This document shows positions 39,127 through 59,220 of a stretch of DNA of 64,000 nucleotides, one piece after another. Numbering within the stretch: position 1 is the stretch's first letter; every line of letters starts with the position of its first letter. The position numbers and the translations under genes were made by a program. The notes below the pieces were generated by a model. It saw only the letters and a list, made by a program, of their open reading frames with translations, did no database searches and had not been told where the DNA came from. The DNA comes from Parafrankia elaeagni (GTDB taxonomy: Bacteria > Actinomycetota > Actinomycetes > Frankiales > Frankiaceae). The stretch covers positions 1 to 64,000 of the forward strand of contig NZ_KB893712.1 of NCBI RefSeq assembly GCF_000374165.1. The letters run 5' to 3'.

Positions 39127-39199
39127 CGACGCCCCCGTCTCACTGATTGATCGACGTCAATACTTTCCGTGAGGCGAGGGCGGGTCAAGCCACTTCGTA

Positions 39200-45100: not shown

Positions 45101-45722
45101 GCTTGTTCACCGCGGCGCTGGCGATCAGGTTCTCGGCCTCGGTCCGAGCCTTACGTTCGGCTTCCAGCGCTGTGGTGGACTCGGCGAGGCGCGTACGGGC
45201 CTGAGTCAGCGCCTTGCGGTGGCCGTCCAGGGCCTCGCGTAGCTCGGCCAGTTCAGCCGGGTCCGTGACCCCGACGCCCTCGCCGGGGTCTGTGGGCGGA
45301 ACGAACTCGGCGACAGTTCGGCGGCCCTCGATCGCATCGTGAAACCAGAGGCCGAGCTGATAGCAGACCTGCACGGCGGCGAGGGCACGTGCGGTGTCGA
45401 AGAGATGCCGGTGGGCGGCCTTGTTCCGGTCTCGGCGCAGTTGGTCGAAGTCAGCGCGAACGCGGCTGCTGAGCACCCCGACCTTGGTCAGCGCGGCCAG
45501 CCGGTCGATCTGGCGGTCTCCCTCGACGCGGAGGCCAACTTGAGTAACCATCTCCTCTGCCAGAACTTCGCCGAACTGGCCGGCCTGGACCAGCGAGGAG
45601 TTCGGGTTTGTGAAGACGGTTGCCTCGGCGAGCGCGCCGTAGATGGCCAGCAGAGGCTGGTGCTGGTAGAGCACTCCGAAGTTCGGTGACCCCTTCGCGA
45701 AATCGCGAAGCCGCTCGTCCAC
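42162..45722 (-). CDS. hsdR: Type I restriction endonuclease motor subunit (HsdR, EcoEI-like)
   Basis: A 1186-residue protein. The GTG at 45722 follows AGGGGGGA; the frame is open further but without family features. An N-terminal DUF4145/HEPN-like helical domain (residues 1-150; QLRRDRNKAAHRHLFDTARA) is followed by a coiled coil (about 175-265). The HsdR nuclease domain comes next (VREFTLATGRADYVLYVDGK; GVVEAKREGD carries the D...ExK site). An SF2 helicase follows with MATGAGKTFTAV (Walker A), IIDECHRSIYG (motif II) and KGRGARTIDPT (motif VI), ending in an EcoEI_R_C-type domain. It translocates DNA and cleaves unmodified targets. Confidence 0.95.
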   Translation of the reverse strand: MDERLRDFAKGSPNFGVLYQHQPLLAIYGALAEATVFTNPNSSLVQAGQFGEVLAEEMVTQVGLRVEGDRQIDRLAALTKVGVLSSRVRADFDQLRRDRNKAAHRHLFDTARALAAVQVCYQLGLWFHDAIEGRRTVAEFVPPTDPGEGVGVTDPAELAELREALDGHRKALTQARTRLAESTTALEAERKARTEAENLIASAAVNKQRLLDHVEQLTAQIQQLRHAQQTKYEVARQEPRKVDSRRRDAIIHRAQRAAPLNEMQARGAIDEMLRAAGWIVQDRDQVNPMAGQGVAVREFTLATGRADYVLYVDGKIVGVVEAKREGDHLSSAVEQNDRYAAGVLKEHRLAVWRESEPFAFRYATTGTETYFINRLDPDARSREVFTFHRPETVAAWMRRAEEAPRAQTFRAALRHLPVLEPNGLRLAQIDAISGLEKSLSEDRARALIQMATGAGKTFTAVAQAYRLLKHARARRILFLVDRNNLGRQAYDEFRKFTTPDDGRRLSDIYNIDRLGPAGLQDTSSVVICTIQKMYSLLRGETLADDEQTDEAEDSLAYEDPYATDQPIEVSYNPQVPIEAFDLIIIDECHRSIYGLWRGVLEYFDAHLVGLTATPTLQTLGFFGRNLVSEYTYPQAVADGVNVDFDIVRMRTDLRENGGATIESGTTVRVKDRKTRRQRYQELDDDFTYTTGQIGRSVVTLDEIRAVLIAYRDNWRRWFPGRSELPKTLIFAVGEDHAEDVLAQAKEIFGRGDDFAKKITYKSRQAGEDPDELIRALRTSPRLRVAVTVDMIATGTDVKALECVIFLREVRSAVLFEQMKGRGARTIDPTELQEVTPDADDLVRKDRFVLVDAVGVTDSPLVDAKPLVPAGERQVSLAKLLDKAGTKSISASEAEILAGRLARLNQQLTDEERDRLTRASGGRTLSEIAGAIVTAVDPDQQEQALEEGGQAAARRLVEDAIAPLTEHPELRRHIIEIRRDKDYLFDEVTAVEVTAVDEIPREVRAREQIDRWSRLLQEQRDRIAAVEIALTSPRSVSPAEAYAALKELELEIRRPQYAWTPQVLWTYYEDLGSGVHARTREAGVPDLISLIRYELGVDDELRLYRATVEERFEGWLLKQQQAGATFTEDQLWWLEAIRNVVATDVGISPAEFNAEPFKGRGGGRGFTHAFPDRNARSLLSELNRELA

Positions 45723-46150
45723 AAGTCCCCCCTGCGCCGCGCCGCACACGGACCGAACGAGTCTACCGATGTGCTCCCAGCGGCCTCCGGCCTCACCTTG
45801 GCTGGCAGCACGAGGACAGGCACTCGCGGTGACCTGACAGTGATCTGACTGTTGTTGTGCATGCAACTTCTGTCAGGTTGCTGTCAGGTCGTGCCGTGGA
45901 TACCGGGAAGCCCGGTGGCCCGGCTGGATTCGTCGACCTTCCCGGCCACCACAGCAGCACCCGCGCTGCGATGGGCCGGCTCCGGCCAGCACGTCGGCGA
46001 CGGCAGTCACCGGCCGGCGACACTACCTCCCGCATGCGGGCTCAGAAAGAGCGCAACCTCGCGGAGCCGCTCTGGAACAGCCGTCGGTGGCCGGTGATGG
46101 CTTGCCTCGACGGCCGTGACATCCCACAGTGTGAGCACCGCGGTTCGTGG
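45723..46150. other. hsdR promoter region and island border, no gene seen
   Basis: A perfect 10-bp inverted repeat, GACCTGACAG (45831-45840) and CTGTCAGGTC (45881-45890), lies 110-170 bp upstream of hsdR, with another CTGTCAGGT half-site between the arms. This may be an operator. The remaining sequence holds no recognisable gene and separates the defence island from the lanthipeptide cluster. Confidence 0.45.
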
Positions 46151-47047
46151 CTATAGCGGCACCCTCGAGACTTTCAGCGCTGCTCTCCGACGGGGGAGAG
46201 GACGGCCGAGAAGGTGGGTGGCGCGGGCGCGTAGCAGCCATGTGTGGTCGAAGCTGCTGCCGGGGTGGACGGCGTCAAGTTGTTCCGCGATGACGGCCAG
46301 CTCGGCGCAGCGGCCGGTCTCGGCGGAGAGCACGTCGGCGAAGTTCGCTCGGACCTGAGCGGCGAGCGTTGGAATGAGCAGGCTGTGGCAGTGGAGGGTG
46401 GCGGCATCGTAGCCGGCGGGTGCCAGGCCCCAGCCTTCCCAGTCGAGCACGCGGAGGGTGGGGCCGCAGAGGTTGGCCCAGTGCAGGTCTCCGTGCGCGG
46501 TTACCCACGGTGCGGGCGCCGCGGTGGTGATCGGCTCGCCGAGCATCCTGGGCATGACGTCGTCGAGGTAGGACTGCTCGATGGTGCGCCGGTCGGTGGA
46601 GACCGTGGCGAGGATGCAGAGGGAACGGCGTAGTGCCTGGAACCAGTGCCTTTTCGGTGAGCCGGTGAGCCGCCGCGGCACGGTGGTGGCGGCGAGAGGC
46701 CGGGCGTGGACGCGGTCGTACAGCTCGGCGCGGTAGTCCCAGCCGTCGTGGTGATGGTCGTGGATCGCGCGTAGCGCTGGGCGTGGGATGGATGCTGGCA
46801 GCGCCTGCTGTGCGGTGCGTCCGCCGTCCCAGAATGTGGTGATCTGCTGTCCGGCTTCGGTGGCGGCGATCCGCAGCCAGCCTGGGCTGCCAGGAGTCAT
46901 TACCGGTCGGCCGAGAGTTCGTCCGGCGAAGCCCCACGCTTCCTCAGCCCGGGTCGGGTCGACCGTGACCCGGAGGGCGGCGCTGGATCGCTCGTGCGCT
47001 GCGCGCATGCGGGTGAGGGTGTCTGCGTCGTTCGGCGGCGGCCACAT
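46151..47047 (-). CDS. Aminoglycoside phosphotransferase-like kinase in the lanthipeptide operon
   Basis: A 298-residue APH/choline kinase-fold protein. The Brenner motif is WVTAHGDLHWANLCG and the metal-binding aspartate is in LRVLDWEGWGLAPAGYDAAT. An N-terminal lobe (RVTVDPTRAEEAWGFAGRTL) is present. The ATG overlaps the last base of the upstream gene's stop codon (TGATG), so it is part of the lanthipeptide operon. It could phosphorylate the peptide or an intermediate, or confer self-protection. The substrate is unknown. Confidence 0.85.
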   Translation of the reverse strand: MWPPPNDADTLTRMRAAHERSSAALRVTVDPTRAEEAWGFAGRTLGRPVMTPGSPGWLRIAATEAGQQITTFWDGGRTAQQALPASIPRPALRAIHDHHHDGWDYRAELYDRVHARPLAATTVPRRLTGSPKRHWFQALRRSLCILATVSTDRRTIEQSYLDDVMPRMLGEPITTAAPAPWVTAHGDLHWANLCGPTLRVLDWEGWGLAPAGYDAATLHCHSLLIPTLAAQVRANFADVLSAETGRCAELAVIAEQLDAVHPGSSFDHTWLLRARATHLLGRPLPRRRAALKVSRVPL

Positions 47048-48096
47048 CAGCGAGCCTGCGGCGTCAGCGCTTGGGGAAGTGCGGGAGCGCGGAGGATGGT
47101 CTCGCGTGCTGTGGCGGCGAGTACGCCCTGGGTCTCGACATTCAGGCCGAGGCGATTCCAGTGGAAGATCACATGGTGGGCGAGGACCTCGCGTAGCCCG
47201 CGGCGCAAGGTCCCGGCGTATGCGGCCTGACCAAGGGCCTGACCGGCATCGTGAAAGGCGCTGGCCCAAGTCCCCAGGTTGGCCAGCGGTCGGTCCGAGC
47301 CGAACAGGTCGCCTGCCGGGTCAGTGTCGGCAGCCAGCAGCCTGCGCAGGGCGGTGGCAAGCCGTTGAATTTCAGCGGCGGTGGGTGATGTTGCTGGTGG
47401 AGGGCGTAGGCGGCTGACGCGGTCGAAGACGTCGCCGCGTTCGTACCAGTCCAGGCCCGCGGCGCGCAGGAGCGTGACGATCAACAGCATCGACAGTTCG
47501 CGGCGGCCGAGACTCGGCGGGGTCTTGCTGGTGATCTCGCTGTGGATGCGGCCGAGGGTGTGGCCGCTGTCGGCGGTGAACAGCCGGTGCGCGACTTCAG
47601 TGCCGACCTTGCCGCCGAGGGCGTAGTCCTCCGGCTCGTAGATGCCTTCGGCCCAGGTGCGGATGGTTCCGGCCGCGGTCAGGTCGTCGAAGGCGGGGCG
47701 GAGGGTGGCACGTAGATCCGCCAGGGACTTGCCGCTGGCTAGGGAAAGCCGTAGCCGCCAGTCGGGCGACTTGCGCACGAACCACCAGGAGTCGACAGCG
47801 CCGGTGGTCTGGGCATGGCGCAGGACAGGTGCCAGGTGGGTGGCTGCGACGGTCTCTGCGCCCGCTGAGTCGGGAAACGTGACGCGCACCTGGAACCAGG
47901 CGGCGCCTTGGACCGCGAGCGCGGCGCGACCTGCCGCCTGGTAGGTGGCGACAGCTGCGGCGAGCTGGTCGGGATGCAGGGCGCTATGGTCTGCCGCAGT
48001 GGGTAGCGGGATGCCGGCCAGCACCGCGAGTACGGCCTGTTCGGTGCCGATGTTTCGGCTGGGGACGGTCAGTGGATCAGCAGGCATCTGTCCCAT
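47047..48096 (-). CDS. Stand-alone thiopeptide-type biosynthesis (SpaB_C-like) protein
   Basis: A 349-residue protein matching the C-terminal elimination-type domain of LanB enzymes: WFQVRVTFPDSAGAETVAAT, WWFVRKSPDWRLRLSLASGK, GGKVGTEVAHRLFTADSGH and HVIFHWNRLGLNVETQGVLA. The full-length LanB encoded upstream already has such a domain, so this is an additional copy. It might carry out glutamate elimination as in split LanB systems, or another modification of dehydrated residues. The start (48096, or ATG at 48087) overlaps the lanC gene. Confidence 0.85.
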   Translation of the reverse strand: MGQMPADPLTVPSRNIGTEQAVLAVLAGIPLPTAADHSALHPDQLAAAVATYQAAGRAALAVQGAAWFQVRVTFPDSAGAETVAATHLAPVLRHAQTTGAVDSWWFVRKSPDWRLRLSLASGKSLADLRATLRPAFDDLTAAGTIRTWAEGIYEPEDYALGGKVGTEVAHRLFTADSGHTLGRIHSEITSKTPPSLGRRELSMLLIVTLLRAAGLDWYERGDVFDRVSRLRPPPATSPTAAEIQRLATALRRLLAADTDPAGDLFGSDRPLANLGTWASAFHDAGQALGQAAYAGTLRRGLREVLAHHVIFHWNRLGLNVETQGVLAATARETILRAPALPQALTPQAR

Positions 48097-49286
48097 CCGG
48101 TGGCCGGTGCGCCGGTGGCGACGCTGTGGAGGACGAGGGCGATGCCGGCGTCTCCTTCGAGGAGCCCATCAGCTCGCCCGCTGTTCGAAAGGGCGGAGAG
48201 CAGGAGGGAGGCGGCGAGTGTCGGCAAGTGGCGGCTGAGGGTGTCGGTGGTGGCGTCGGCGGCGGCGCGGGCGACGGTTTGGTACAGGCCGGCCCATCCG
48301 TGGCACAGCCCAGCGTCGGTGAGGTGGGCGAGCTGGACGGAGTCGGTCAGGCAGGCGGCGAGCGCTTGTTCGGCGGTGTTCTGGCGGGCGGTGTTACCGG
48401 TAGCGAGGCCGGCGAGCTGGAGGGCGCGGGCGATCCCGGGAGTGCCGTAGCACCAGCTCGGGCGGCCGGGGCCGGACTGGGTCGGTCTTGTGGCCTGGTG
48501 GTCGGCGCGGGTGATCCACTGCGGCCAGAACGGGCCGCTGGGGGTGTGTTGGCGCCATCGGTCGTAGAAGGCGCACAGTGTGTTGATCGCGTCGGTCTGA
48601 CCGTCGACGCGGATCCCAGCGCGTGTGGCGAGTGACAGCAGGGCCAGCGGGCCGGCGGCGCCGTGGGCCATGCCGAGGTTGGCGTGCCCACCGGCGAATT
48701 CCGGCGCGTTGCCCTGGGACGGGTCGTGGCTGCACCACCAGCCGGGCAGTTCTTCTCCGTCGATGTTGAGGGGTGTGGTGAGGCGGACGAGGTAGGTGAG
48801 GATGCGGCCGAGGGCGTCGTCGCCGGGGGTGTGGGCGAGGAGGTGGGCGCCGATGCCGGTCAGTCCGCTGATGACGTCGTACTCGGTGAACCGTCCCGCT
48901 TCACCTCGGTCGATGCGGGTGTTGGCAGCGTCGACGCGGCGGTGAGCGATGGTGGCGACGGCTCGGTCGAGCGCGGTGCGCGCTGTGGTGTAGCGGCGGG
49001 TCTGCCCGGCGGCAGTGTGAACGGCGAAGGCGACCGCTGGGGCGCCGGCGTAGAGCGAGCTGTTCATCGCCACGCTGACGCGGCCAGCGATGGCCGCTGC
49101 CAGCCACGTCTGGACGGACTCCCAGTGCTCGGCGCTGGCGTGCGTTCGTTCGGCGTGCAGGAGGGCGATGCCGGCCGCTCCGTCGGCGAGCGACTGCGCG
49201 GTCTGCCCGAGCTCGCCACAGGCCGGGCTGGTGAGGCGGGCGGCGAGGCTTGCTGCGGTGGCGGCGGCCTGGTCGCAGTCGATCAT
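48069..49286 (-). CDS. Lanthionine synthetase C family cyclase (LanC-like)
   Basis: A 405-residue alpha-toroid cyclase. Zinc ligands are visible in SWCYGTPGIARALQLAG (Cys) and DAGLCHGWAGLYQTVARAA (Cys and His). GG-containing repeats such as LADGAAGIALLHAERTHA, ISGLTGIGAHLLAH, GGHANLGMAHGAAGPLALLS and LEGDAGIALVLH mark the toroid. The enzyme joins Cys thiols to dehydroalanine/dehydrobutyrine to form lanthionine rings. The ATG overlaps the lanB stop codon by 4 nt. Confidence 0.93.
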   Translation of the reverse strand: MIDCDQAAATAASLAARLTSPACGELGQTAQSLADGAAGIALLHAERTHASAEHWESVQTWLAAAIAGRVSVAMNSSLYAGAPAVAFAVHTAAGQTRRYTTARTALDRAVATIAHRRVDAANTRIDRGEAGRFTEYDVISGLTGIGAHLLAHTPGDDALGRILTYLVRLTTPLNIDGEELPGWWCSHDPSQGNAPEFAGGHANLGMAHGAAGPLALLSLATRAGIRVDGQTDAINTLCAFYDRWRQHTPSGPFWPQWITRADHQATRPTQSGPGRPSWCYGTPGIARALQLAGLATGNTARQNTAEQALAACLTDSVQLAHLTDAGLCHGWAGLYQTVARAAADATTDTLSRHLPTLAASLLLSALSNSGRADGLLEGDAGIALVLHSVATGAPATGWDRCLLIH

Positions 49287-52200
49287 GAAACGGTCGCTTC
49301 GGTGGTTGCGAGGGCGCGTGCGGCTGTGGCTCGGGCGAGGGCGATGCAGGTCTGTTCGGCTGCGGAGTTCAGGCCGAGGGTTCGGACAGCGTGCAGGTGC
49401 AGCAACGAGGCCAGGGCCTGGTCAGGCGGGCGCTGCGCGGCGAGGACGTCCCGGTAGGTGGCCAGCGCTGCTGCCCGCGTCTGCCAGGCGGACAACACGG
49501 CGTCGGCCCCGGGCACGGCCCGCAGATGGGCGAAGCCATCTGCGGGGTTGGCCAGGTGCAGCGCGACGGCGCGTTCCGCCCGTTGGACGCGGGCGGGCTC
49601 GTGGCGTAGCTCATCGCGAAGCCACTGCATGCCGGTGGAAAACTCGCCGGTGAAGGCGATGGCCATGTCGACCAGGCCGGCGACGGTGAGCGCTTCGACG
49701 GGCAGGCGGGCGCTGGCGGCGAGGCGGCGGGTGGCGAGGGCGGCGGCGGAGTCGGTGGAGAACACGGCTTCGGCGGCGGTCATCGCCGGGCCGTAGCCGT
49801 AGCGGCCGGTTTCCGGTTGGTAGGTGTCGAGGTGGAGGTGGGACAGCAGTCCGGCCTCGCGCTGTGCCGCCGCCCAGGTTCCCAGCCGCGTGGCCGCCGG
49901 CCCGTAGCCGCCACGTTCGGTGATGGCGAGGCGTAGCCGCAGGTGGGGCTCGGTGTCGCGGTAGGGCAGGAACCACCACGCGGGCGGGTCGGGCCACGCG
50001 TCCATGAGGTCGTGGAAGCGGGTGAGGAGATCGGTGGCCCGGTCGGGGTGGCCGTAGAGCCGGGCCGACAGCCACGGCGATACACCGGGTAGCTGGGCAT
50101 CCGACCGAGCAGCGGGCACGGTTGCTGCGAGGCGCTCCGGTGCCGGCCCCGGCAGGGGTGCGGCGGTGGTGGCCAGCGGGATGACCAGTTCGTGGGCGTG
50201 GCCGTCGAGCCAGCCGAAGGCGCCCGGGGCGGCGTCCTCGTCGAGTCGAGCGGAGCCGTGGCGGTGCAGGTGATCGCGTAGCAGGGCGAGGTGGGTGTCG
50301 ACGTGCAGGTCGAGGCGCAATCGGTTGTCGGTCTCGACGAGCTGGACCCGCGTGGGCATTGGGATCGCGCCGCCCCAGCTGGCCAGTGCCTCGAGCCATT
50401 CCTTCGCCGGCTCGGCGCGGCCGGGCAGGTCGGCGGCTGTGAGGTTCCAGCGGGCCGGGGCGAGCACGGTGCGCCGATGGACGAGCCGGGGCAGGAACGG
50501 CAGCCCACCGGCAGCGCCCCAGGAGAAGGGGATGGAGACGGCGACGCGGGCGGTGGGGAGCTCGCACAGGAACCGTGTCAGCGGGTGGGTGTGGTACCGG
50601 AACTCCACTGCGTGCGCGGCGGACGGCTCAACGAGACGCCGGTCGGGCAGCGACACCAGGTAGAGCCCTTCAGCGTCGGCCCCGATGGCCAGGTCGGCTG
50701 GGCGCAGCACGCCCGGACCGGCGTCGTGATGCTCGGCGAACGTGATCACTGTGTCGGCGAGCTGCGGTGATCGGGCTACGCCGACGGTGACTGCGGGAAG
50801 GGGCGGACAGGAAACCTGCGCGGCCGTCGTGCCGGCCCGCATGGTGGGCAGGGCGGCGTAGGCGTCGCGGAACCGGTCGAAGGACGCGGAGTCGAGCAGG
50901 TGCAGGAAGCGGCCGATGGTGGTTGCGACGGCGCGCCCGCCTCCAGTGACACGCAGGGTGAACGCGCCGCGCGACAAGGCCGTCAGGTCCTTCGCGTGGA
51001 CCTCGGCGATGAGTTCGGCGTGCGGTGGAACCCGGTCCGGCACGGTGTCGCCGGCCAGGGCTGCGATGTCGGCGTCGCCGAGGCGTACCTCGAGCGCGCC
51101 GTCCAGGGCCGCTCGTTGCGCGAGTGCGGCCAGGCGCTGGTCGCGGGCCGCGTTCGCGCCGGGGCGGTGGGAGCGTGTGGAACCGCGGAAGGTGGCGGGT
51201 AGACCGAGGCCGGTGTCAGGGTTGACGGCTTCCAGCAGCGGGACGAGGGCGGCGGGGCCGTAGCGTTCGAGGAAGGCTTCGTGCCAGTCCGCCCACTCAG
51301 GGGGGACGGCGGTCGGCGCCGTGAGCCGGGCGAGCGCCCGAGCGGCGGCCCCTGCCTCCTCGGCAACAGCCGCCGGCAGGACCACGTCGGCGTTCACCAC
51401 GACGCCTACGTCGAGATCCGGGGCGGCGCTGGGAACGATGCGCCGTTGAAGTACGGCTGCCTGCGTGCGCAGCGCGCGACGGTGCGAGGCGGAGTGCGAG
51501 TTGTCGTGGTGGGTGAGTAGGTCTTGCAGATTGCGGATCACGCTGTGGCGGCCGGCGAGTGGGGGCAGGTCGTCGGTCCGGGCCGCGGCCAGCTGGTCGG
51601 CGACTTCGCCGAGCGGATCGGTGATGGTCGTCGCCGGGCGTAGGGGCGTGTGCAGGAACCGGCGGCGGACCAACTCGATCACCATGGCCTCGATCTGGCT
51701 GGCAGCGGCAGCGGGTGCGTCGGCGGCGAGACGGGCGACCAGCTCGGGGATGGGCAGCGAGCTGGCCGCGTGGCGCAACGTGGCTTCCACGGCCCGGGTG
51801 CGGCGCACCGACACATCGACCACCGCCTCCGGCCCGGCATCGTCGCCGGGCCGGACAACAGGGCCGGTGAACAGGCGGTCGCCGCGGGCGATTGGCAGCC
51901 CGTCTGCGGTGACCGGCAGCCGCTGCAACAGCGCATTGGACGCTTCCAGGTCGTCGGCGAGCGCGGCGAGCCAGCCGCCGCCCGGCCGGGCGTGAACCCG
52001 ATGGTTGTCGCCGAGCCGGACGCGTGCCCGCGGGCCGAAACCCGCGGGCGCGACACCGGCGAACAGGCCGAAAGGGGTGGCACGCCCGACCATCCGCAAC
52101 ACGTACCGGGCTGTCGCCGTGACAGCCCGGCGGGCCGCCCGCCGATCGTGGCATTGCCCGTCGAGGACCGACGCGACCCGCGCCGCCAACGACGGGCTGG

Positions 52201-52372
52201 CAAGCGTCATCGCGTCGGCGAACACGGGCCGTGCCCAGATGTCCCGCAGCCAATCCGTCCAGCCGGCTACGGCGCTGTCGGTGTTGTCGTCGAGGTCTGG
52301 CCATGGTGGCAGGTCGACATCGGTGGGAACCACCGCCATCCGTAGCAGCGGAACGTCAAGGCTGCGGTACAT
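49283..52372 (-). CDS. Class I lantibiotic dehydratase (LanB)
   Basis: A 1029-residue full-length LanB from the ATG at 52372 (a GTG lies one codon upstream). The N-terminal glutamylation domain is recognisable in RYVLRMVGRATPFGLFAGVA, RGSTRSHRPGANAARDQRLA and PFSWGAAGGLPFLPRLVHRR. The C-terminal elimination domain (SpaB_C) begins near residue 770 (WLSARLYGHPDRATDLLTRF; WWFLPYRDTEPHLRLRLAIT). The enzyme glutamylates Ser/Thr of the precursor with glutamyl-tRNA and eliminates glutamate. Its position just downstream of the precursor gene fits. Confidence 0.95.
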   Translation of the reverse strand: MYRSLDVPLLRMAVVPTDVDLPPWPDLDDNTDSAVAGWTDWLRDIWARPVFADAMTLASPSLAARVASVLDGQCHDRRAARRAVTATARYVLRMVGRATPFGLFAGVAPAGFGPRARVRLGDNHRVHARPGGGWLAALADDLEASNALLQRLPVTADGLPIARGDRLFTGPVVRPGDDAGPEAVVDVSVRRTRAVEATLRHAASSLPIPELVARLAADAPAAAASQIEAMVIELVRRRFLHTPLRPATTITDPLGEVADQLAAARTDDLPPLAGRHSVIRNLQDLLTHHDNSHSASHRRALRTQAAVLQRRIVPSAAPDLDVGVVVNADVVLPAAVAEEAGAAARALARLTAPTAVPPEWADWHEAFLERYGPAALVPLLEAVNPDTGLGLPATFRGSTRSHRPGANAARDQRLAALAQRAALDGALEVRLGDADIAALAGDTVPDRVPPHAELIAEVHAKDLTALSRGAFTLRVTGGGRAVATTIGRFLHLLDSASFDRFRDAYAALPTMRAGTTAAQVSCPPLPAVTVGVARSPQLADTVITFAEHHDAGPGVLRPADLAIGADAEGLYLVSLPDRRLVEPSAAHAVEFRYHTHPLTRFLCELPTARVAVSIPFSWGAAGGLPFLPRLVHRRTVLAPARWNLTAADLPGRAEPAKEWLEALASWGGAIPMPTRVQLVETDNRLRLDLHVDTHLALLRDHLHRHGSARLDEDAAPGAFGWLDGHAHELVIPLATTAAPLPGPAPERLAATVPAARSDAQLPGVSPWLSARLYGHPDRATDLLTRFHDLMDAWPDPPAWWFLPYRDTEPHLRLRLAITERGGYGPAATRLGTWAAAQREAGLLSHLHLDTYQPETGRYGYGPAMTAAEAVFSTDSAAALATRRLAASARLPVEALTVAGLVDMAIAFTGEFSTGMQWLRDELRHEPARVQRAERAVALHLANPADGFAHLRAVPGADAVLSAWQTRAAALATYRDVLAAQRPPDQALASLLHLHAVRTLGLNSAAEQTCIALARATAARALATTEATVS

Positions 52373-52396
52373 CACGCACCTCTCAGCGGCGGAGGA

Positions 52397-52567
52397 TCAG
52401 TCCTGCTTGCAGCTGGTGCAGGCCGACGCGCAGGTCTTGCCGCAGTTGTCACTGGTGGAGCGCAGCAGCTCGGGGATGACGGGCCCGCCGTCGACGATCT
52501 CGACGTCCAGGTCGTAGTCGCCGGCGAGGGGGAGTGGGGCTGGGGCGGTCGGGTGGGCAGGAGTCAT
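52397..52567 (-). CDS. FxLD-family lanthipeptide precursor
   Basis: A 56-residue peptide whose ATG follows GAAAGGG. The leader carries the FxLD-type recognition motif as Tyr18-Asp19-Leu20-Asp21, with the usual Phe replaced by Tyr, followed by VEIVDGG. The core has Cys42, Cys46, Cys50 and Cys53 plus Ser37, Thr38, Ser39, Thr45, Ser48, Thr51 and Ser52. Up to four thioether rings are therefore possible. Asp40-Asn41 and the C-terminal Asp56 are candidate methylation or isoaspartate sites. It lies between the lanB and methyltransferase genes on the same strand. No protease or transporter gene is visible. Confidence 0.88.
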   Translation of the reverse strand: MTPAHPTAPAPLPLAGDYDLDVEIVDGGPVIPELLRSTSDNCGKTCASACTSCKQD

Positions 52568-52618
52568 GGCGTATCCCTTTCCTTCGAGGGGTTGGTGGTG
52601 AGGCCGTCGCTGTGCTGG

Positions 52619-53863
52619 TCAGGGCCAGCTCAGGACGACGGTGCGGTGACGCTTGGCGATCATCCGGCCGGGCGGAAGCGCTGCGGCAGGCGTCGTGGCC
52701 GGGTAGACGTTGATCGTGGCCGGCGGCCCGTTGCGGTGGGTCCGGTTCCAGGCCTGGACCTGCGTGACGACCAGGTCGGCGAGGCGGGTGGCGTCGGGGC
52801 CGTGGGCGTAGGCGCCGAACTCGTAGGTGTTGTCGCCGTCCTCGATCTTTCGGAGGGTGAGGTAGGCGAGGCTGCCCGCTTCCACGGCGGTGGGTGTACC
52901 GATCGGTGAGGCGGGGTCGACGAGTTCTCGTGCGGTCTGGGAGCGTGCGCGGGAGAGCAGGCCGTAGTTGTCGAGGGTGCCGGCCAGCCACAGCAGCAGC
53001 CCGTCGAAGGGCTCCATCCCGCCGAACCGCACCTGCGACCATGCCTCGACCCGTGGGGTGAGCAGGGCGGCTCGTAGCGCGGCGGCGTCGAGTTCGGGTA
53101 TCTGCTCGTCGAACCGCAGTCCGACGTCGGCATCGTGGAGCGGGACGAGGCGTTCGGGATGGGCGCCGTCGCCGCGCACGGGCACGAAGCCGGCCATCTG
53201 GTGGTCGAGACTGACCAGAGTGCCGTCGCGGGGGGTGAGCGCGACCGTCCGGCTCAGTCCCCGCATCCGCAGGGGAACGATGATCCGGCCGTCTGGGGCG
53301 AGTTGATCGGTCCAGGCGGGTGGGATGTCCCAGGCGCCCGCGGTGACGATGATTCGGTCGTAGGGAGCCTGCTCGGGGGCCCCGTGCTCGGCGTCGGCCA
53401 GCACGACGTGTACCTGGTCGTAGCCTGCCGCGGTCAGGCAGTGGCGGGCTCGTTCGGTCACGTCGGCGTCGATGTCCATGGTGGTCACCGCGCCGGTCGG
53501 GCCGACGAGTTCCGCGATCAGCGCGGCGTTGTAGCCCCCGGAGCCCACTTCGAGTACCCGCATGCCGGGGCTGATTCCGGCCTGTTCGAGCATCGTTGCC
53601 TGGAGCCACGGGGCGGAGACCGAGCTGACTGTCACGCCGTTCTGGTCGTGCTTGGTCCGCACGATGTCGTCGGCGTAGGCGTCCTTCAGCGAGACCTCGG
53701 GAGCGAACAGGTGCCGCGGCACCGTACGGAACGCTGCCTCGACCTCCTTCGTTCTGATCGAGCCCTCCGCGATGAGGTCGTCCACGAGACGGGCCCGCAG
53801 ATCCTCAGCACGCGCTTCCCCGTCGGCTCCGGGTGGTTGTTGTTGCCCTGGCATGTCGCTCAC
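52619..53863 (-). CDS. FxLD-system protein-L-isoaspartate-type methyltransferase, first copy
   Basis: A 414-residue protein with GTG start. The N-terminal half is a PCMT-like methyltransferase: AFRTVPRHLFAPEVSLKDAY, VSSVSAPWLQATMLEQAGIS, VLEVGSGGYNAALIAELVGP (motif I) and PYDRIIVTAGAWDIPPAWTD. The C-terminal 170 residues are an extension shared with the second copy (LAYLTLRKIEDGDNTYEFGA; INVYPATTPAAALPPGRMI) and typical of FxLD-system methyltransferases. It probably methylates an aspartate carboxylate in the modified peptide, giving aspartimide or isoaspartate. This activity is known for related lanthipeptide and graspetide enzymes and is inferred here. Confidence 0.88.
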   Translation of the reverse strand: MSDMPGQQQPPGADGEARAEDLRARLVDDLIAEGSIRTKEVEAAFRTVPRHLFAPEVSLKDAYADDIVRTKHDQNGVTVSSVSAPWLQATMLEQAGISPGMRVLEVGSGGYNAALIAELVGPTGAVTTMDIDADVTERARHCLTAAGYDQVHVVLADAEHGAPEQAPYDRIIVTAGAWDIPPAWTDQLAPDGRIIVPLRMRGLSRTVALTPRDGTLVSLDHQMAGFVPVRGDGAHPERLVPLHDADVGLRFDEQIPELDAAALRAALLTPRVEAWSQVRFGGMEPFDGLLLWLAGTLDNYGLLSRARSQTARELVDPASPIGTPTAVEAGSLAYLTLRKIEDGDNTYEFGAYAHGPDATRLADLVVTQVQAWNRTHRNGPPATINVYPATTPAAALPPGRMIAKRHRTVVLSWP

Positions 53864-53897
53864 ACGGTTCTCCCTCCTGCGATGTCGGTGATTGGTT

Positions 53898-55106
53898 TCA
53901 GTCCCAGGTGATCAGGAGCTGGGCTGATGGTTTCGTGAGGAGCCGGCCAGGTAGCGCCGAGGCCCGGCCGGCGGCGGTGGGGTAGACGCGGATGGTGGGG
54001 TCCGGGCCGCCGCGCCGCTCGGCGTCCCACACGCGGACGTCGTAGGTGAGCAGGTCAGCGAGCCGGTACCGGTCGGGGCCGTGCGCGACGACACCGATCT
54101 CCACGCCGGTCCCGCCGGTCGGGGTGAAGGTCAGGTAGGCGAGGCTGTCATCGGACCAGCAGGCGGACACCCCGACGGGCGTCGGGAGCAAAGGCAGTTC
54201 GGGTCTGGCGGAGGTGTCGGTGCCGTGGAGCCGGCCGTAGGTGGGCTGCACGGTGGCCAGCCACAGGTCCAGGCTGGGCAGGGCATCTGCGGCGGGGGAG
54301 AGGGCCACCCCGGTGGAGTGGGTGTGGCTCGGCCCGCTGATCGCGCCGCGGAGCGCGTCGGGATCGGCGTCCTGGTCGTCGTCGAGGTCGAGGTGGATCC
54401 CGTCGGCGATGCGGATCATCCGGGGCGAGGAGGCACGGGCCCCGGCGCCTTGGACGCGGACGAAGCCGTAGGGCCGCATCGAGTCGGAGGTCAGGATCTC
54501 GCCGTCCCAGGTGAATCCGACGGTGCGCAGCAGACCGCGTAGCTGCAGCGGGATGACGATGCGCCCGCCGGTGACGAGCTGGGCGGTCCAGGCGGGCGGG
54601 ATGTCGGGTGCGTTGACGGTGACGACAATCCGGTCGTAGGGGGCGCGGAGCGGGAACCCGAAGTGCCCGTCGTTGATCAGCGCTGTGACGTCGGTGTAGC
54701 CGGCGGCGCCGAGGCAGGCACGGGCACGGCGGATCACGGCCTGGTCGATGTCGACGGTGGTGACATGGCCGGTTGGCCCGGTCAGCTCCGCCAACAGCGC
54801 CGCGTTGTAGCCGCCGGAGCCGATCTCCAGGATCTGATGGCCGGGCTCGACCTGGAGCTGCTCGAGCATCGCCGCGACGGTCGAGGGCCGCGACACCGAG
54901 CTGAGCGGGGCTCCGTAGACGTCACGTTTCGTGACAACAGCATTGTCCTTGTACGCCTCCTCGGTGGAGGCGTCGGGCAGGAACAGGTCCCGGGGCACGG
55001 CGCGCAGCGCAGCCGCGACCGAGACGGAGACGGGCTCCTTCGCCAGGACCAGGTCGACCAGCGCCGTGTGCAGCAGCGCGATCGAAGCCTCCGCGGAAGC
55101 GGGCAT
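53898..55106 (-). CDS. FxLD-system protein-L-isoaspartate-type methyltransferase, second copy
   Basis: A 402-residue paralogue of the neighbouring methyltransferase. Shared segments include AALRAVPRDLFLPDASTEEA, LSSVSRPSTVAAMLEQLQVE, ILEIGSGGYNAALLAELTGP and APYDRIVVTVNAPDIPPAWT, as well as the C-terminal extension (LAYLTFTPTGGTGVEIGVVA; IRVYPTAAGRASALPGRLL). The ATG overlaps the stop of the DUF397 gene by 1 nt (TGATG). Having two such enzymes with one precursor suggests two modification sites or a heteromeric enzyme. Confidence 0.87.
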   Translation of the reverse strand: MPASAEASIALLHTALVDLVLAKEPVSVSVAAALRAVPRDLFLPDASTEEAYKDNAVVTKRDVYGAPLSSVSRPSTVAAMLEQLQVEPGHQILEIGSGGYNAALLAELTGPTGHVTTVDIDQAVIRRARACLGAAGYTDVTALINDGHFGFPLRAPYDRIVVTVNAPDIPPAWTAQLVTGGRIVIPLQLRGLLRTVGFTWDGEILTSDSMRPYGFVRVQGAGARASSPRMIRIADGIHLDLDDDQDADPDALRGAISGPSHTHSTGVALSPAADALPSLDLWLATVQPTYGRLHGTDTSARPELPLLPTPVGVSACWSDDSLAYLTFTPTGGTGVEIGVVAHGPDRYRLADLLTYDVRVWDAERRGGPDPTIRVYPTAAGRASALPGRLLTKPSAQLLITWD

Positions 55107-55336
55107 CACCCCACCCCGTCGAGCAGATCGTCGTACTCGCCCCGCTTGACCGCACGGACGAAGTCCCCGAACGCGCCAGGGGTGGTCCGCACCGACGGGC
55201 CCAGACTCGACCTGATCAGGACACGGTGCTCGTCGAGCGCGACCTCGACGGCATCGGGCACCGTCGGGTCGAGCTCGGACGGACGCCGCCACCGCGGGAC
55301 GGCCGGGACAGACATGCCAGTGGGCGCAACAGACAC
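55106..55336 (-). CDS. DUF397 family protein
   Basis: A 76-residue protein from the GTG at 55336, placed 6 nt after GAGGAA; ATG at 55315 is also in frame. It has the DUF397 pattern: WRRPSELDPTVPDAVEVALD, HRVLIRSSLGPSVRTTPGAF and DFVRAVKRGEYDDLLDG. Small DUF397 proteins often accompany XRE regulators in Streptomyces and Frankia and may work as their partner or antitoxin. Here it begins the lanthipeptide operon, divergent from such a regulator. Confidence 0.8.
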   Translation of the reverse strand: MSVAPTGMSVPAVPRWRRPSELDPTVPDAVEVALDEHRVLIRSSLGPSVRTTPGAFGDFVRAVKRGEYDDLLDGVG

Positions 55337-55550
55337 GGGTTCCTCGAAACGATGTGGTCGGCGTGGACGGGTGGAGCCCGCCGAACCCGGGCCGCACGAC
55401 TCGGCCCAGGCCCGGCGGGAGCTGAAGCGGCGAGGTGACATCCGCCGGGGGGCTCGTCCGCCGCGAGCTGCTGCGACGGACGGGACCGGATCGGCATGTT
55501 CACCGCGCGCAGCACCCATGACACACTGCGCCCAAACGGAGCAACAGACA

Positions 55551-55586
55551 GCAACGGCTCGTTGCGCGCATGCAACAGCTCGTTGC
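55551..55586. promoter_or_regulatory. Two palindromic sites spaced 21 bp apart
   Basis: GCAACGGCTCGTTGC (55551-55565) and GCAACAGCTCGTTGC (55572-55586) differ at one position and start 21 bp apart, about two helical turns. Each has GCAAC/GTTGC arms. They lie in the divergent region between the DUF397-led lanthipeptide operon and the XRE regulator gene, where the regulator's operator is expected. Confidence 0.65.
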
Positions 55587-55621
55587 ACCCACCTGCGAAG
55601 GCGTCAACGGGGAGGCCGAAG

Positions 55622-56914
55622 GTGCAAGCTGGTCAGCGAAACGACGCACTCGCCAACCTGGCAGACCTGCTGCAGAACCTGCGCGACCAGAATCGGACCA
55701 ACAACACCCGGCTCGAAGCCCGCACCGGATTCAAACGCCAGCAGATCTCCCGGGCCCTCAACGGCCAGGAGATCCCGTCTGCGGACCTCGCGGACGCACT
55801 GGACACCGCGTTCGCGGCAGGGGGAGCCATCCGGCGATTGCGGGACGAAGCTGTCAGGGAGAAGCGGGCCCGGGATCTGGGGCTCGACCCGCACAGGCAG
55901 GAGGAACCCGTGGACGCCAACCGCCGGCAGGCGTTCGAACTCGCCGCCGCGAGCCTCGTCGCCGCCCAGATGTACCGGGAGTGGACCTCGTCCGCGCCCG
56001 ACGTCCTGACCCTCGACGAGATCGACGACGCGATCAACGCGCACACCATCGCGTTCACCGTCGAACCGCACCAGCGGCTCGCGCCGAAGGTGTGGAAGAC
56101 GTGGAAGTCGGCGCACCACCATCTGATGAACGGCAGTGGCCGGGCCCGCCCGCAGACCCAGCTCACCGTCGCCGCCGGCTACGCCTCCTACATGCTGTCG
56201 CGGCTGTCGTTCAACCTCGGGGACACCCTGGCCTCCCGCCGGTTCATCCGACTCGCCGAAGATCACGCGAACCAGGCCGACGACGTCGTGCTCACCGCCT
56301 CCGTCGGGGAGATGGTGACCACGCTGGCGTTCTACGGTCGCCGCTACCAGGAAGCAGCCGTTTCGGCGCGCAAGACCGCTGTCGTGGCGGACCACCCCTA
56401 CACCCGGGCCCGGATCGCCAGTTACGAAGCGCGGGCCCTCGGCGCCCTGGGTGACGCCGCTGGGACCCGGGCGGCGTTGAACCGGATGCGAGCCTCGGTC
56501 ACGGACCTGCCGCTGCAGCCCGGTATCAGCCCGTTCGGCCCGGCCGCCGCGGAGATGATGTACGCCGGGGTCCTCACCCGCATCGGTGGTGGCGTCGAGG
56601 CGGAACCGATCGCCCGTGCCGCGCTCGCCGCCTACGAAGGCGGCCAGGCCGCCGGCTTCGAGGACTACGGCCACGCGCTGCTCGCGCTCGCGGCCAGCCT
56701 CACCGCCCGGGAACAGCCCGAGATCGACGAAGCCGCAGCCGTGACTGGGAAGGTCGTCGACATGCTGGACACCCGGCCCACCGCCTCGGTCTCCGACCGT
56801 GTCGCCGAGATCGCCACAGCGTTCACTGGCCACCCCACCGTCGGACCCGTGCGCGACTTCTGGGACCGCTGGCAGGCACGCCCCCGCCTCGAACTCACCA
56901 CAGGTCAGGCGTGA
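55622..56914 (+). CDS. XRE-family regulator with TPR-like domain, divergent to lanthipeptide operon
   Basis: A 430-residue protein from the GTG at 55622, preceded by GGGGAGG. The N-terminal helix-turn-helix (about residues 8-60: LANLADLLQNLRDQNRTNNT; LEARTGFKRQQISRALNGQE) is followed by a helical region of TPR-like repeats (about 110-420). These include AHHHLMNGSGRARPQTQLTV, LGDTLASRRFIRLAEDHANQ and ARIASYEARALGALGDAAGT. Such proteins control secondary-metabolite clusters in actinobacteria together with DUF397 partners. The two palindromes upstream are its likely binding sites. Confidence 0.9.
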   Translation: MQAGQRNDALANLADLLQNLRDQNRTNNTRLEARTGFKRQQISRALNGQEIPSADLADALDTAFAAGGAIRRLRDEAVREKRARDLGLDPHRQEEPVDANRRQAFELAAASLVAAQMYREWTSSAPDVLTLDEIDDAINAHTIAFTVEPHQRLAPKVWKTWKSAHHHLMNGSGRARPQTQLTVAAGYASYMLSRLSFNLGDTLASRRFIRLAEDHANQADDVVLTASVGEMVTTLAFYGRRYQEAAVSARKTAVVADHPYTRARIASYEARALGALGDAAGTRAALNRMRASVTDLPLQPGISPFGPAAAEMMYAGVLTRIGGGVEAEPIARAALAAYEGGQAAGFEDYGHALLALAASLTAREQPEIDEAAAVTGKVVDMLDTRPTASVSDRVAEIATAFTGHPTVGPVRDFWDRWQARPRLELTTGQA

Positions 56915-57489
56915 CCATGGCCCTCCACTACGGAACCCCGTCGGTCGTCACCATTCCCACCGTGCTCACCGAACGGCTGATGCTGCGCGGGTGGAAAGCT
57001 GCCGACCTTGACCCGTACGCCGCGATGAACGCCGACCCGGAGACCATGCGCTACCTGGACGGCACGTTCGACCGTGGTGGCACCGAGCGGCTGGTCACCC
57101 ACCTGATCGGCATGTGGGCGATCCGCGGACACGGCATGTGGGCGGTCGAGGACCGGGCCAGCGGGGAGTTCCTCGGCCGCGCGGGCACCTACTTCGCGCA
57201 GGGCTGGCCGGGTGTGGAGGTCGCGGTCTCGATCCGCCGGGACCGCTGGGGTCAGGGTCTGGGCACAGAGGCGATCACGGCGGCGCTCGACTTCGGGTTC
57301 GCGCACCTCGACGTCGACGAGCTGATCACCGCGACCCATCAGGAGAACACGGGCATGAACACGATCGCCCGCAAGCTCGGGATGACCTTCCGGGAGATCG
57401 CCGACGTCGGTCCCTGGAAGGCGAACAACGTCCACGCGATCAGCCGGGTCGACTGGGCCGCCCGTCGAATCGATGAGATCCGACGATGA
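56911..57489 (+). CDS. GNAT family N-acetyltransferase (RimJ-like)
   Basis: A 192-residue acetyltransferase of the RimJ/RimL type. It begins VLTERLMLRGWKAADLDPYA and has the acetyl-CoA loop in RRDRWGQGLGTEAITAALDF. The final segments ITATHQENTGMNTIARKLGM and VHAISRVDW are typical. It acetylates an amino group of a protein N terminus or small molecule. The start overlaps the regulator stop codon by 4 nt, so the two are co-translated. It may tailor the lanthipeptide or have a role independent of the cluster. Confidence 0.9.
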   Translation: MTMALHYGTPSVVTIPTVLTERLMLRGWKAADLDPYAAMNADPETMRYLDGTFDRGGTERLVTHLIGMWAIRGHGMWAVEDRASGEFLGRAGTYFAQGWPGVEVAVSIRRDRWGQGLGTEAITAALDFGFAHLDVDELITATHQENTGMNTIARKLGMTFREIADVGPWKANNVHAISRVDWAARRIDEIRR

Positions 57490-58245
57490 GACCCGACGCT
57501 GACGGCCCCAGGGCGCCGCACGAAGCGCGGATATCGTCGTGGTGCCCCCGGTCAACGGCGCGGTGCGCGTCGATGTTCATTTCTGTGAGCGAAACTGCAT
57601 GTTTGTCCCAATAGTGAATAAGAGTCGATTGGTCCGTTATGCCTGTCGGAGGGGGTTGCGGGCCTGCGACCTGCGGAAACGGTGCCGCCGAGTGTCGCTT
57701 CCCTGGCTTTGAGGGTCTGTGTCGAGGCGAATTGACGGGGCGTGGGTGGGCTTGTCCCGGATGGCGGTATGGAGCTACGGTCGTGTCCGCCCCCTTGACC
57801 GCTGGGCACCGACCCGCTACCGGGTGGCCGGTTCGGTGGGAGATGGGGCGCTGGTAGCAGCGAGGCGCTGAGCGTGGTTCCGCCGGTGGTCCACTGGACT
57901 GGTGACGGGACGTGAAGTTCCAGGGTGTCGCTGCGCGTCGGGTGGCCTGCGAGCCGCTCCCGGGAGCTGATTCCTGGGAGCGGGGAACGCGGGTCCGCAG
58001 CCGGGTGCCACCTGCGTGGCGTCATGCCGGAAAGGAGGGACGACAGCGATGGCGTCCATTCTCCGTTCGCGGACCTTCCCGAGAATCGCCTTCTAACCAA
58101 TCACGCCGGTCGGCCAGCGCACCGCCGCGACCCCTACGACGGGTCCGCGTGGCGGTCCGGTTGGGTGACCGTGTCTGGGACCGGCTGGCCCACCGCGCTG
58201 TGAGACGGCGGGCCAGCCGGATAGCCGGCGCGTGCGTTGACGCAG
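57490..58245. other. Intergenic region at the lanthipeptide/integrative-element border
   Basis: The region contains an AT-rich patch (57575-57640) that may be a promoter. Open frames on both strands give Arg/Pro/Gly-rich translations without family character. I see no RNA gene. The border between the lanthipeptide cluster and the mobile-element genes lies here. Confidence 0.4.
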
Positions 58246-59220
58246 GTGAGCACGGCTGGACGGGCTCGCGGACGGATCCAGACTCGACGTCCTGGAGCAG
58301 GTATTCCCACGACTTCGACGCGCGGGCGGGGCCGGCCGGTAGGTCCGCTGGCGCTCCTGCAGGGTTTGACTGACAGAGATCTCTACCTACTGGATGTGCT
58401 GGCGGCGCATCGTGTCCTGACTGCGGAGCAGGTGGCCGCGTTGCTGTATCCCTCGGTGGATCGGGCGCAGCGCCGGCTGCTGGCGTTGACGCGCCGAGGG
58501 GCGTTGGAGCGGTTCCGAGCGCGGGTGTATCCCGGATCGCAAGCGTGGCGGTACACGCTGAGTTATCCGGCGGTGCAGCTCCTCGCCGCGGGGCGGGCGG
58601 AGCGGCCGATGTCCCGGTCGGCGCACAACGCCGCGGTGCTCCGCTTGGCGCGGAGCGGCACCCTCGAACACCAACTGGGTGTGAACGGATTCTTCACCAG
58701 CCTCGCCCGAGACGCGGCTGCCCGTCCAGGGACCCGGTTGGCCAGCTGGTACTCGGAATCCACCGTGTACGACGTGATCAAATGGCAGTATCAGCTCGCG
58801 GGGTCGGTCCGTCCGGATGGGTACGGCCGATGGATCGAGGGCTCGCGGACGACGACGTTCTTCGTCGAGCACGACCGGGGCACCGAATCGCTAGAACGGC
58901 TCAGCGGCAAGATCGCTGCCTACGGGACTCACTATCCGGGCATGACCGTCCTGTTCCACCTGCATTCCGCGCTTCGTGAGACGCACTTCCACCACAAGCT
59001 CCTCGGGGCCGGTCGGGAAGGGATCGCGACCACGACGGCCGAGCTCCTCGCCGCATCGGGAGAAGGGGCGAGCGGGCCGGTCTGGCTGGCCGGCGCGGCT
59101 GGTACTCGGCGCCGTCTGCGGCTGAGTGAACTGCCAAACAGTGGGTTCGCTCTACGGATCAACGAGTTCAGTGTCGGCACCGCCCCGATCCCGGCGCCGC
59201 ATCTCCCCGAGGTCGCGTGA
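58246..59220 (+). CDS. Replication-relaxation family protein
   Basis: A 324-residue protein from the GTG at 58246 (TTG at 58237 is in frame). An N-terminal winged-helix (GLTDRDLYLLDVLAAHRVLT; AEQVAALLYPSVDRAQRRLL; ALTRRGALERF) is followed by a nuclease-like fold. This carries SVRPDGYGRWIEGSRTTTFF and VEHDRGTESLERLSGKIAAY. This is the Replic_Relax family found in conjugative plasmids and integrative elements of actinobacteria. It supports the idea that the right end of the window is an integrated element. Confidence 0.85.
   Translation: MSTAGRARGRIQTRRPGAGIPTTSTRGRGRPVGPLALLQGLTDRDLYLLDVLAAHRVLTAEQVAALLYPSVDRAQRRLLALTRRGALERFRARVYPGSQAWRYTLSYPAVQLLAAGRAERPMSRSAHNAAVLRLARSGTLEHQLGVNGFFTSLARDAAARPGTRLASWYSESTVYDVIKWQYQLAGSVRPDGYGRWIEGSRTTTFFVEHDRGTESLERLSGKIAAYGTHYPGMTVLFHLHSALRETHFHHKLLGAGREGIATTTAELLAASGEGASGPVWLAGAAGTRRRLRLSELPNSGFALRINEFSVGTAPIPAPHLPEVA

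What the first reader, a model, noticed from the sequence alone, without database searches (positions are those of the whole stretch)
46151..57489. FxLD lanthipeptide cluster with an unusual enzyme set
The operon encodes a precursor, LanB, LanC, a second stand-alone elimination-type domain, an APH-like kinase, two isoaspartate-type methyltransferases and DUF397, with a divergent XRE regulator and GNAT enzyme. Successive genes overlap or nearly touch from the DUF397 gene to the kinase. No transporter or leader protease is visible, so export and maturation must rely on genes elsewhere.
Basis: partly seen in the sequence, partly recalled or inferred. Interest (0 to 1): 0.72.

Follow-up and report, generated by a model that had tools for sequence, protein, structure and literature searches.

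The report
Lanthipeptide gene cluster with extra enzymes
This stretch of a Frankia-family bacterium's genome encodes a known type of ring-shaped modified peptide whose key aspartate is probably rearranged; the gene set is mostly standard, but it carries a second methyltransferase, a kinase-like gene and a common helper protein that lacks two residues its relatives need for their usual reaction.

Summary
At 46151-57489 a class I lanthipeptide cluster of the FxLD type runs DUF397, methyltransferase MT1, MT2, precursor, LanB, LanC, stand-alone elimination-like protein, APH-like kinase, with a divergent XRE-GNAT pair. Most of the "unusual" set is standard: of 57 LanB loci counted in the family (window included), 56 have an isoaspartate-type methyltransferase, 46 the stand-alone domain and 2 an ABC-transporter motif. 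This fits the published lanthimiditide/OlvSA group. Less usual are the kinase (5 of 57) and two or more methyltransferases (10 of 57). MT1 is no recent copy of MT2: its clade has 5 of 10 rows without LanB nearby. The cassette is 89-92% identical at DNA level in four genomes of three genera without tracking host kinship, sits beside mobile-element genes, and each cassette gene compared has dN/dS of 0.50 or less. The stand-alone protein lacks equivalents of NisB Arg826 and His961 in 54 of 54 copies; LanB keeps them in 56 and 53 of 56, so it is probably no glutamate lyase. Verdict: new variant of a known kind; roles of kinase, MT1 and stand-alone protein are inferred.

The parts
46151..47047 (-). 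APH-like phosphotransferase, last gene of the operon
   Evidence: H185, D187, N192, D202, E204 invariant in a 14-row alignment; in 35 rows the presumed beta3 Lys position is Arg in all but three; sub-threshold for PF01636 alone, 10 of 14 homologues match; start codon overlaps the previous stop; dN/dS 0.32-0.41
47047..48096 (-). stand-alone LanB elimination-like (PF14028/TIGR03891) protein lacking the NisB R826 and H961 equivalents
48069..49286 (-). LanC cyclase
   Evidence: PF05147 152 bits; WCYG and CHG motifs in the region aligned to NisC 2g02
49283..52372 (-). full-length LanB dehydratase (start ATG 52372 or GTG 52375)
   Evidence: PF04738 + PF14028; aligns to MibB 5ehk and NisB; Arg826 and His961 equivalents present
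52397..52567 (-). precursor peptide, 56 aa, YDLD leader, core with TSDNC
   Evidence: TIGR04363 60.6 bits; 94.6% identical in the three other cassettes
52619..53863 (-). MT2, FxLD-type Asp O-methyltransferase (LanSA type)
   Evidence: TIGR04364 539 bits; in a 17-row group with 14 LanB-linked rows
53898..55106 (-). MT1, second methyltransferase of a separate clade
   Evidence: TIGR04364 401 bits; 10-row clade, support 100/100, 5 rows without LanB within 9 kb
55106..55315 (-). DUF397 gene
   Evidence: PF04149 28.8 bits; 1-nt overlap with MT1
55551..55586 (.). operator-like double inverted repeat: GCAAC-N5-GTTGC, N6, GCAAC-N5-GTTGC between regulator and DUF397
   Evidence: both copies kept in all four cassettes, not in L106; the two exact copies are the only matches in the window, though the count at up to 1 mismatch (2) is no more than shuffles give (mean 1.77)
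55622..56914 (+). XRE / NsdA-family TPR regulator (open frame begins at 55496)
   Evidence: NF053720 78.2 bits against 75; start revised
56911..57489 (+). GNAT acetyltransferase overlapping the regulator gene
   Evidence: PF13302 111.6 bits; 92-96% identical in the other three cassettes
45830..45890 (.). 61-bp imperfect palindrome 3' of the kinase
   Evidence: its 33-bp core (up to 3 mismatches) occurs once each in 4 of 36 genomes, the same four that carry the cassette; alignment
58237..59220 (+). replication-relaxation protein, shared flank
   Evidence: PF13814 121 bits; found in P. colletiae and P. coriariae, not in the G003 stretch L047
60788..62455 (+). large serine recombinase, shared flank
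   Evidence: PF00239/PF07508; shared block reaches 62439 in P. colletiae and 62429 in P. coriariae; not in the G003 stretch L047

Best explanation
A class I lanthipeptide cluster of the FxLD / lanthimiditide kind, carried as a horizontally moving cassette in the Frankia family. Proposed steps: (1) the XRE-DUF397 pair controls a divergent promoter (inferred). (2) LanB binds the YDLD leader, glutamylates and dehydrates core Ser/Thr; LanC closes up to four thioether rings with the four Cys (established for the families, inferred here). (3) MT2 methylates the Asp held in the first ring (T-S-D-N-C), giving an aspartimide that opens to isoaspartate, as reported for OlvSA (inferred by family). (4) The stand-alone elimination-like protein is probably not a glutamate lyase, since it lacks two of the residues that elimination needs; it either does other chemistry on dehydrated residues or helps LanB with its substrate (the residue loss is shown, the role is inferred). 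(5) The APH-like protein keeps the phosphotransfer residues and most likely phosphorylates the peptide, as tailoring or producer protection (inferred, about 40%). (6) MT1 comes from a different methyltransferase lineage; it either re-methylates the same Asp/isoAsp or has another substrate (inferred). (7) Leader removal and export use genes elsewhere (inferred).
For: Curated family hits for precursor, LanB, LanC, both methyltransferases, stand-alone protein and DUF397. The whole cassette in the same order in P. colletiae (L049, kinase cut at the contig end), Protofrankia coriariae (L045) and G003 (L047, with a deletion in MT1) at 84-100% protein identity. dN/dS 0-0.50 in the ten cassette genes. 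Arg826 equivalent: Arg in 56 of 56 LanB, Ala/Pro/Val in 54 of 54 stand-alone rows; His961 equivalent: His in 53 of 56 LanB, in 0 of 54 stand-alone rows, NisB numbering anchored; NisB R786A, R826A and H961A add glutamate without eliminating it (PMC4979651, one passage). Kinase at the 3' end of an FxLD operon also in G009 (about 50% identity) and in G149 of another family (53%).
Against: No product, expression or activity data. Kinase-family homologues are often orphans: of 14 further regions chosen for a look at about +/-8 kb, 1 holds a full FxLD cluster with the kinase and 8 hold none of the other query genes. MT1 lacks about 340 bp in G003, so it may be dispensable. The presumed beta3 Lys of the kinase is Arg. 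In the alignment the Arg784, Arg786 and Glu823 columns are less conserved in LanB (39, 38 and 42 of 56) than in the stand-alone rows (52, 51, 51 of 54), so either some LanBs differ there or the alignment is locally imperfect. Structure models were unusable.
Confidence: 0.8

Rival explanations
1. The kinase and GNAT are self-protection genes (modifying the finished peptide or its target) rather than maturation enzymes.
For: Last gene of the operon and a separate divergent gene; the families include antibiotic-modifying APH and GNAT enzymes; no other immunity gene is named among the 26 window proteins scanned.
Against: The kinase start codon overlaps the stand-alone gene in the window and the two reading frames also overlap in G149, which fits a shared step; APH-like kinases act on precursors in class V lanthipeptides (PMC9486802, passages).
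Confidence: 0.35
2. MT1 does not act on the lanthipeptide; it is a separate DUF397-linked methyltransferase module that became joined to the operon.
For: The MT1 clade holds 10 rows: 3 from the cassettes, 2 near a LanB cluster that has its own methyltransferase (L079, L095) and 5 without LanB within 9 kb. In L046, L079 and L110 MT1 is followed by a similar gene, which scans as a PF08241 methyltransferase in L110. G003 has a deleted MT1. The cores share one Asp; the C-terminal residue is Asp in two cassettes and Asn in two, one of which has an intact MT1.
Against: Intact, with dN/dS 0.27-0.32 (in G003 only 160 codons compared), and in the same operon in 3 of 4 cassettes.
Confidence: 0.4
3. The stand-alone protein is an active second glutamate lyase that speeds dehydration.
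For: Same domain family as the LanB C-terminus; Arg784, Arg786 and Glu823 equivalents are kept in 52, 51 and 51 of 54 rows.
Against: Arg826 and His961 equivalents are missing in all 54 rows.
Confidence: 0.1
4. The cluster is vertically inherited and the high identity only reflects strong constraint.
For: rpoB is also about 91% identical between the genera; the genes are under purifying selection.
Against: Same-genus P. colletiae is 98.4% identical in rpoB but 91.9% in the cassette, while other genera are about as close in the cassette; recA is 84-85% between genera; 32 of 36 genomes show no near-identical kinase gene; mobile-element genes lie beside it.
Confidence: 0.1

Closest known systems
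Lanthimiditides, e.g. OlvA/OlvB/OlvC/OlvSA of Streptomyces olivaceus (PMC13001092, passages read)
   Same: LanB, LanC, PIMT-type methyltransferase, conserved Asp in the ring motif
   Different: Here two methyltransferases of different clades, an APH-like kinase, and Asp-Asn instead of the common Asp-Gly (Asp-Asn is mentioned there as an observed variant)
Walker 2020 class I families I 1-4 of Actinobacteria (PMC7268733, passages and section 8 read)
   Same: Conserved core Asp, PF01135 methyltransferase; full LanB plus an additional elimination-domain protein is described for some class I clusters
   Different: The words phosphotransferase, PF01636 and APH do not occur in its main text; membership in a numbered family was not tested
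Class V lanthipeptide kinases CaoK / LanK (PMC9486802, passages read) and RosX kinase-fold cyclase (PMC12291118, passages read)
   Same: APH-like protein in a lanthipeptide cluster
   Different: No HopA1-like LanY partner among the proteins scanned; unlike RosX the catalytic residues are kept; dehydration is served by LanB; no sequence comparison with CaoK or RosX was made
Thiostrepton-pathway protein TsrE (PDB 7cww)
   Same: Profile match of the stand-alone family, E 7.5e-5
   Different: No thiopeptide core here; chemistry of the stand-alone family unknown

Membership tests
FxLD lanthipeptide precursor (TIGR04363) | profile score over the curated cut-off | tested here: met
   60.6 bits against 30
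Class I lanthipeptide | LanB (PF04738 + PF14028) and LanC (PF05147) next to a precursor | tested here: met
Class I lanthipeptide | thioether rings in the product | not testable with these tools
   needs mass spectrometry
Lanthimiditide (LanSA group) | PIMT-type methyltransferase with C-terminal extension and a core Asp in the ring motif | tested here: met
   TIGR04364 full length for MT2; TSDNC in the window precursor and in the three other cassettes
Lanthimiditide (LanSA group) | aspartimide or isoaspartate in the product | not testable with these tools
   needs mass spectrometry
NisB-type glutamate lyase (stand-alone protein) | Arg826 and His961 equivalents | tested here: not met
   0 of 54 rows
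Class V lanthipeptide | LanK plus HopA1-like LanY (PF17914) | tested here: not met
   no PF17914 hit among the proteins; not every window gene was scanned
APH phosphotransferase family (PF01636) | profile score over the curated cut-off | tested here: inconclusive
   window protein 17.5 bits against 23.2; 10 of 14 alignment members match at E <= 0.01
Actinomycete integrative element cargo | integrase, FtsK-type transfer ATPase and replication gene beside the cassette | tested here: inconclusive
   FtsK and phage integrase in the G003 flank, FtsK in the Protofrankia flank, replication-relaxation and serine recombinase in the window; element ends were not mapped

The most novel reading that the evidence does not exclude
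A mobile lanthipeptide whose ring Asp is edited by two independently derived Asp methyltransferases and whose peptide is also phosphorylated by an APH-type kinase, with the stand-alone LanB-like protein doing a new non-eliminating reaction on dehydrated residues: a new hybrid maturation scheme in class I.
Probability: 0.15. Interest if true: 0.7.

Novelty: new variant of a known kind. Interest (0 to 1): 0.42.

Why it matters
The four largest class I lanthipeptide families, all from Actinobacteria, had no characterised member in 2020 (PMC7268733, passage), and the function of the stand-alone elimination-like protein was left open there. The residue comparison made here turns that into a direct test. 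The four-genome cassette also gives a natural experiment: one member has a deleted MT1, and the C-terminal residue of the peptide is Asp in two and Asn in two.

Tried and rejected
Looked for a second precursor for MT1 in the gaps between cassette genes and beside MT1-clade genes: none convincing. PADLOC gave only matches of the two methyltransferases to mad2 (62.2 and 52.0 bits), judged to be the shared methyltransferase fold; the defence reading was dropped. Two AlphaFold jobs gave mean pLDDT 32.9 and 52.4 and were not used. Single-sequence PDB searches found no relative of the kinase and, for the stand-alone protein, one unrelated chain at E 0.37; the kinase profile gave only E 0.16 to a spectinomycin phosphotransferase. 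The 61-bp palindrome as a recombination site, and its likeness to the operator-like repeat (3 matches with up to 2 mismatches, shuffles gave a mean of 0.44 and 3 of 100 shuffles gave at least 3), remain open. The S8-protease motif counted for the window lies in a Pro/Ala-rich frame on the other strand from the GNAT gene, taken as chance. A scan for close LanB relatives in genome contigs gave 2 loci; 69 plasmid records hold LanB relatives, all under 60% identity.
Full report
Identity and host. The window is G000:C43:1-64000 of a 7.59 Mb genome in 135 contigs. That G003 (5,433,628 bases) is Frankia strain CcI3 is recalled from its size, not given by a tool.

Anatomy. Pfam and NCBIfam name the precursor (TIGR04363), LanB, LanC, stand-alone TIGR03891 protein, two TIGR04364 methyltransferases, DUF397, an NsdA-family regulator and a GNAT. 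The kinase is below the Pfam cut-off alone, but 10 of 14 alignment members match PF01636, and the HxD, N and DWE residues are invariant in those 14. Overlaps and short gaps make one likely operon from DUF397 to kinase.

How unusual is it? TIGR04364 was sought in the 36 genomes the tool held for the order (300 asked): 29 have a match over the cut-off. I fetched 80 regions around the places over the cut-off plus one contig with LanB only; of the places over the cut-off, the 3.7-kb contig G018:C53 was left out. Loci with a LanB frame over 1.5 kb and 250 bits were counted, after dropping L116 (near copy of L056) and L118 (the window again): 57 including the window. Methyltransferase on the same strand: 56; two or more methyltransferases or pieces: 10; stand-alone domain: 46 (7 fused to a methyltransferase); LanC: 56; kinase: 5; ABC-transporter motif: 2; S8-protease motif: 3, one of them a chance frame in the window. 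Several loci are cut by contig ends, so absences are upper bounds, and the transporter test is a crude motif search. The core layout is thus ordinary for the family and agrees with Walker 2020 (PMC7268733) and a review of aspartimide RiPPs (PMC13001092). PMC10787088 (passages, sections 7 and 8) counts 1305 lanthipeptide clusters with such methyltransferases and gives TxDGC as the usual motif. Here the motif is TSDNC.

Two methyltransferases. In a 98-row tree (L116, L118 and domains under 300 residues dropped, G003's broken MT1 among them), MT2 of the four cassettes lies in a 17-row group with 14 LanB-linked rows; MT1 lies in a 10-row clade with support 100/100, 5 rows LanB-linked (3 of them the cassettes) and 5 not. 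They are therefore not a recent duplication. DUF397 matches lie beside MT1-clade genes in 7 of those 10: window, L045, L049, L095, L111, L113 and L187. In G003 about 340 bp of MT1 are missing.

Kinase. In 394 genomes of the class, 27 have a match at E <= 1e-30. The gene directly follows the stand-alone gene in the window, G003, G017, G024, G009 and G149. Of 14 further regions that I chose from the matches, one (G149) is a full FxLD cluster; L185, L186 and L187 have a methyltransferase close by, L190 and L192 have one further off, and eight have none of the other query genes. The link is recurrent, but the family is wider than lanthipeptides. Class V shows that APH-like proteins can act on lanthipeptide precursors (PMC9486802) or, without catalytic residues, as cyclases (PMC12291118); this one keeps the residues, though the presumed beta3 Lys is Arg.

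Stand-alone protein. Aligning 54 stand-alone rows (three of them divergent and not beside the FxLD operon) and 56 LanB C-termini (rows under 150 residues, L116 and L118 dropped): the Arg826 equivalent is Arg in 56 of 56 LanB and Ala (50), Pro (2) or Val (2) in the others; the His961 equivalent is His in 53 of 56 LanB and Ile (40), Leu (10), Arg (3) or Val (1) in the others. Arg784, Arg786 and Glu823 equivalents are kept in 52, 51 and 51 of 54 stand-alone rows, and in 39, 38 and 42 of 56 LanB rows, so those columns are less certain in LanB. NisB numbering comes from the alignment to 6m7y and 4wd9; that H961 is the first His of the LanB motif is inferred from MibB and 9g04, which keep only that one. 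PMC4979651 (one passage) states that R786A, R826A and H961A glutamylate without elimination, and PMC4341554 (passages) that H961A abolishes dehydration. A profile of 14 stand-alone proteins finds LanB elimination domains and TsrE in the PDB. Walker 2020 already raised the possibility of other chemistry; the listings of two searches of the held library (3 and 12 papers) showed no title or abstract start that settles it.

Mobility. DNA identity to the window is 91.9% over 16.0 kb (P. colletiae), 91.8% over 11.3 kb (P. coriariae) and 91.6%/88.7% over 8.1/3.4 kb (G003), against 98.4, 90.9 and 91.2% for the main rpoB stretch and 85.0 and 84.3% for recA in the last two; P. colletiae has two recA copies at 90.7 and about 93-96%. 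The four copies are about equally distant whatever the hosts' kinship. Flanks hold replication-relaxation and serine recombinase genes (window, P. colletiae, P. coriariae), FtsK-type ATPases (P. coriariae, G003) and a phage integrase (G003). The 33-bp core of a 61-bp palindrome 3' of the kinase occurs once in each of the four cassette genomes and in none of the other 32; in P. colletiae it lies on another contig, after a fragment of a kinase C-terminus.

Selection. Pairwise dN/dS against the three relatives is 0.25-0.50 for LanB, LanC, stand-alone protein, MT1, MT2 and kinase, 0.10-0.21 for the precursor, 0-0.28 for DUF397, 0.08-0.15 for regulator and GNAT. G017's kinase is cut at the contig end and only 160 codons of G003's MT1 could be compared.

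Regulation. A double inverted repeat lies between regulator and DUF397, kept in all four cassettes. XRE-DUF397 pairs are described as regulators, and as neighbours of graspetide clusters including the PIMT-containing group 13, in PMC13097080 (passages).

Limits. No expression or product data; roles of MT1, kinase, GNAT and stand-alone protein are inferred. Also seen only as passages: PMC12710340 and PMC9303977 (FxLD as leader recognition motif); PMC4239341 (DUF397).

Noticed in passing
window 45830-45890: 61-bp imperfect palindrome 3' of the kinase; its core is present once in exactly the four genomes that carry the cassette. In Protofrankia a second fragment of a kinase C-terminus follows it.
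   Followed up: partly
window 38476-45866: Type I restriction-modification genes (HsdM, HsdS, HsdR) with a weakly HEPN-like gene directly beside the cluster.
   Followed up: no
window 10576-15483: 1635-aa protein with two FtsK/SpoIIIE stretches.
   Followed up: no
L106 (G020:C169) and L109 (G028:C89): Homologous GNAT and XRE genes lie side by side near FxLD-type methyltransferases in other loci, so the pair may be a reusable control module.
   Followed up: no
G000: The host has four full-length LanB matches and three recA matches, with estimated contamination of 5.46%.
   Followed up: no
window 62726-63931: DDE transposase with a DDE_Tnp_1-associated domain next to the serine recombinase.
   Followed up: no
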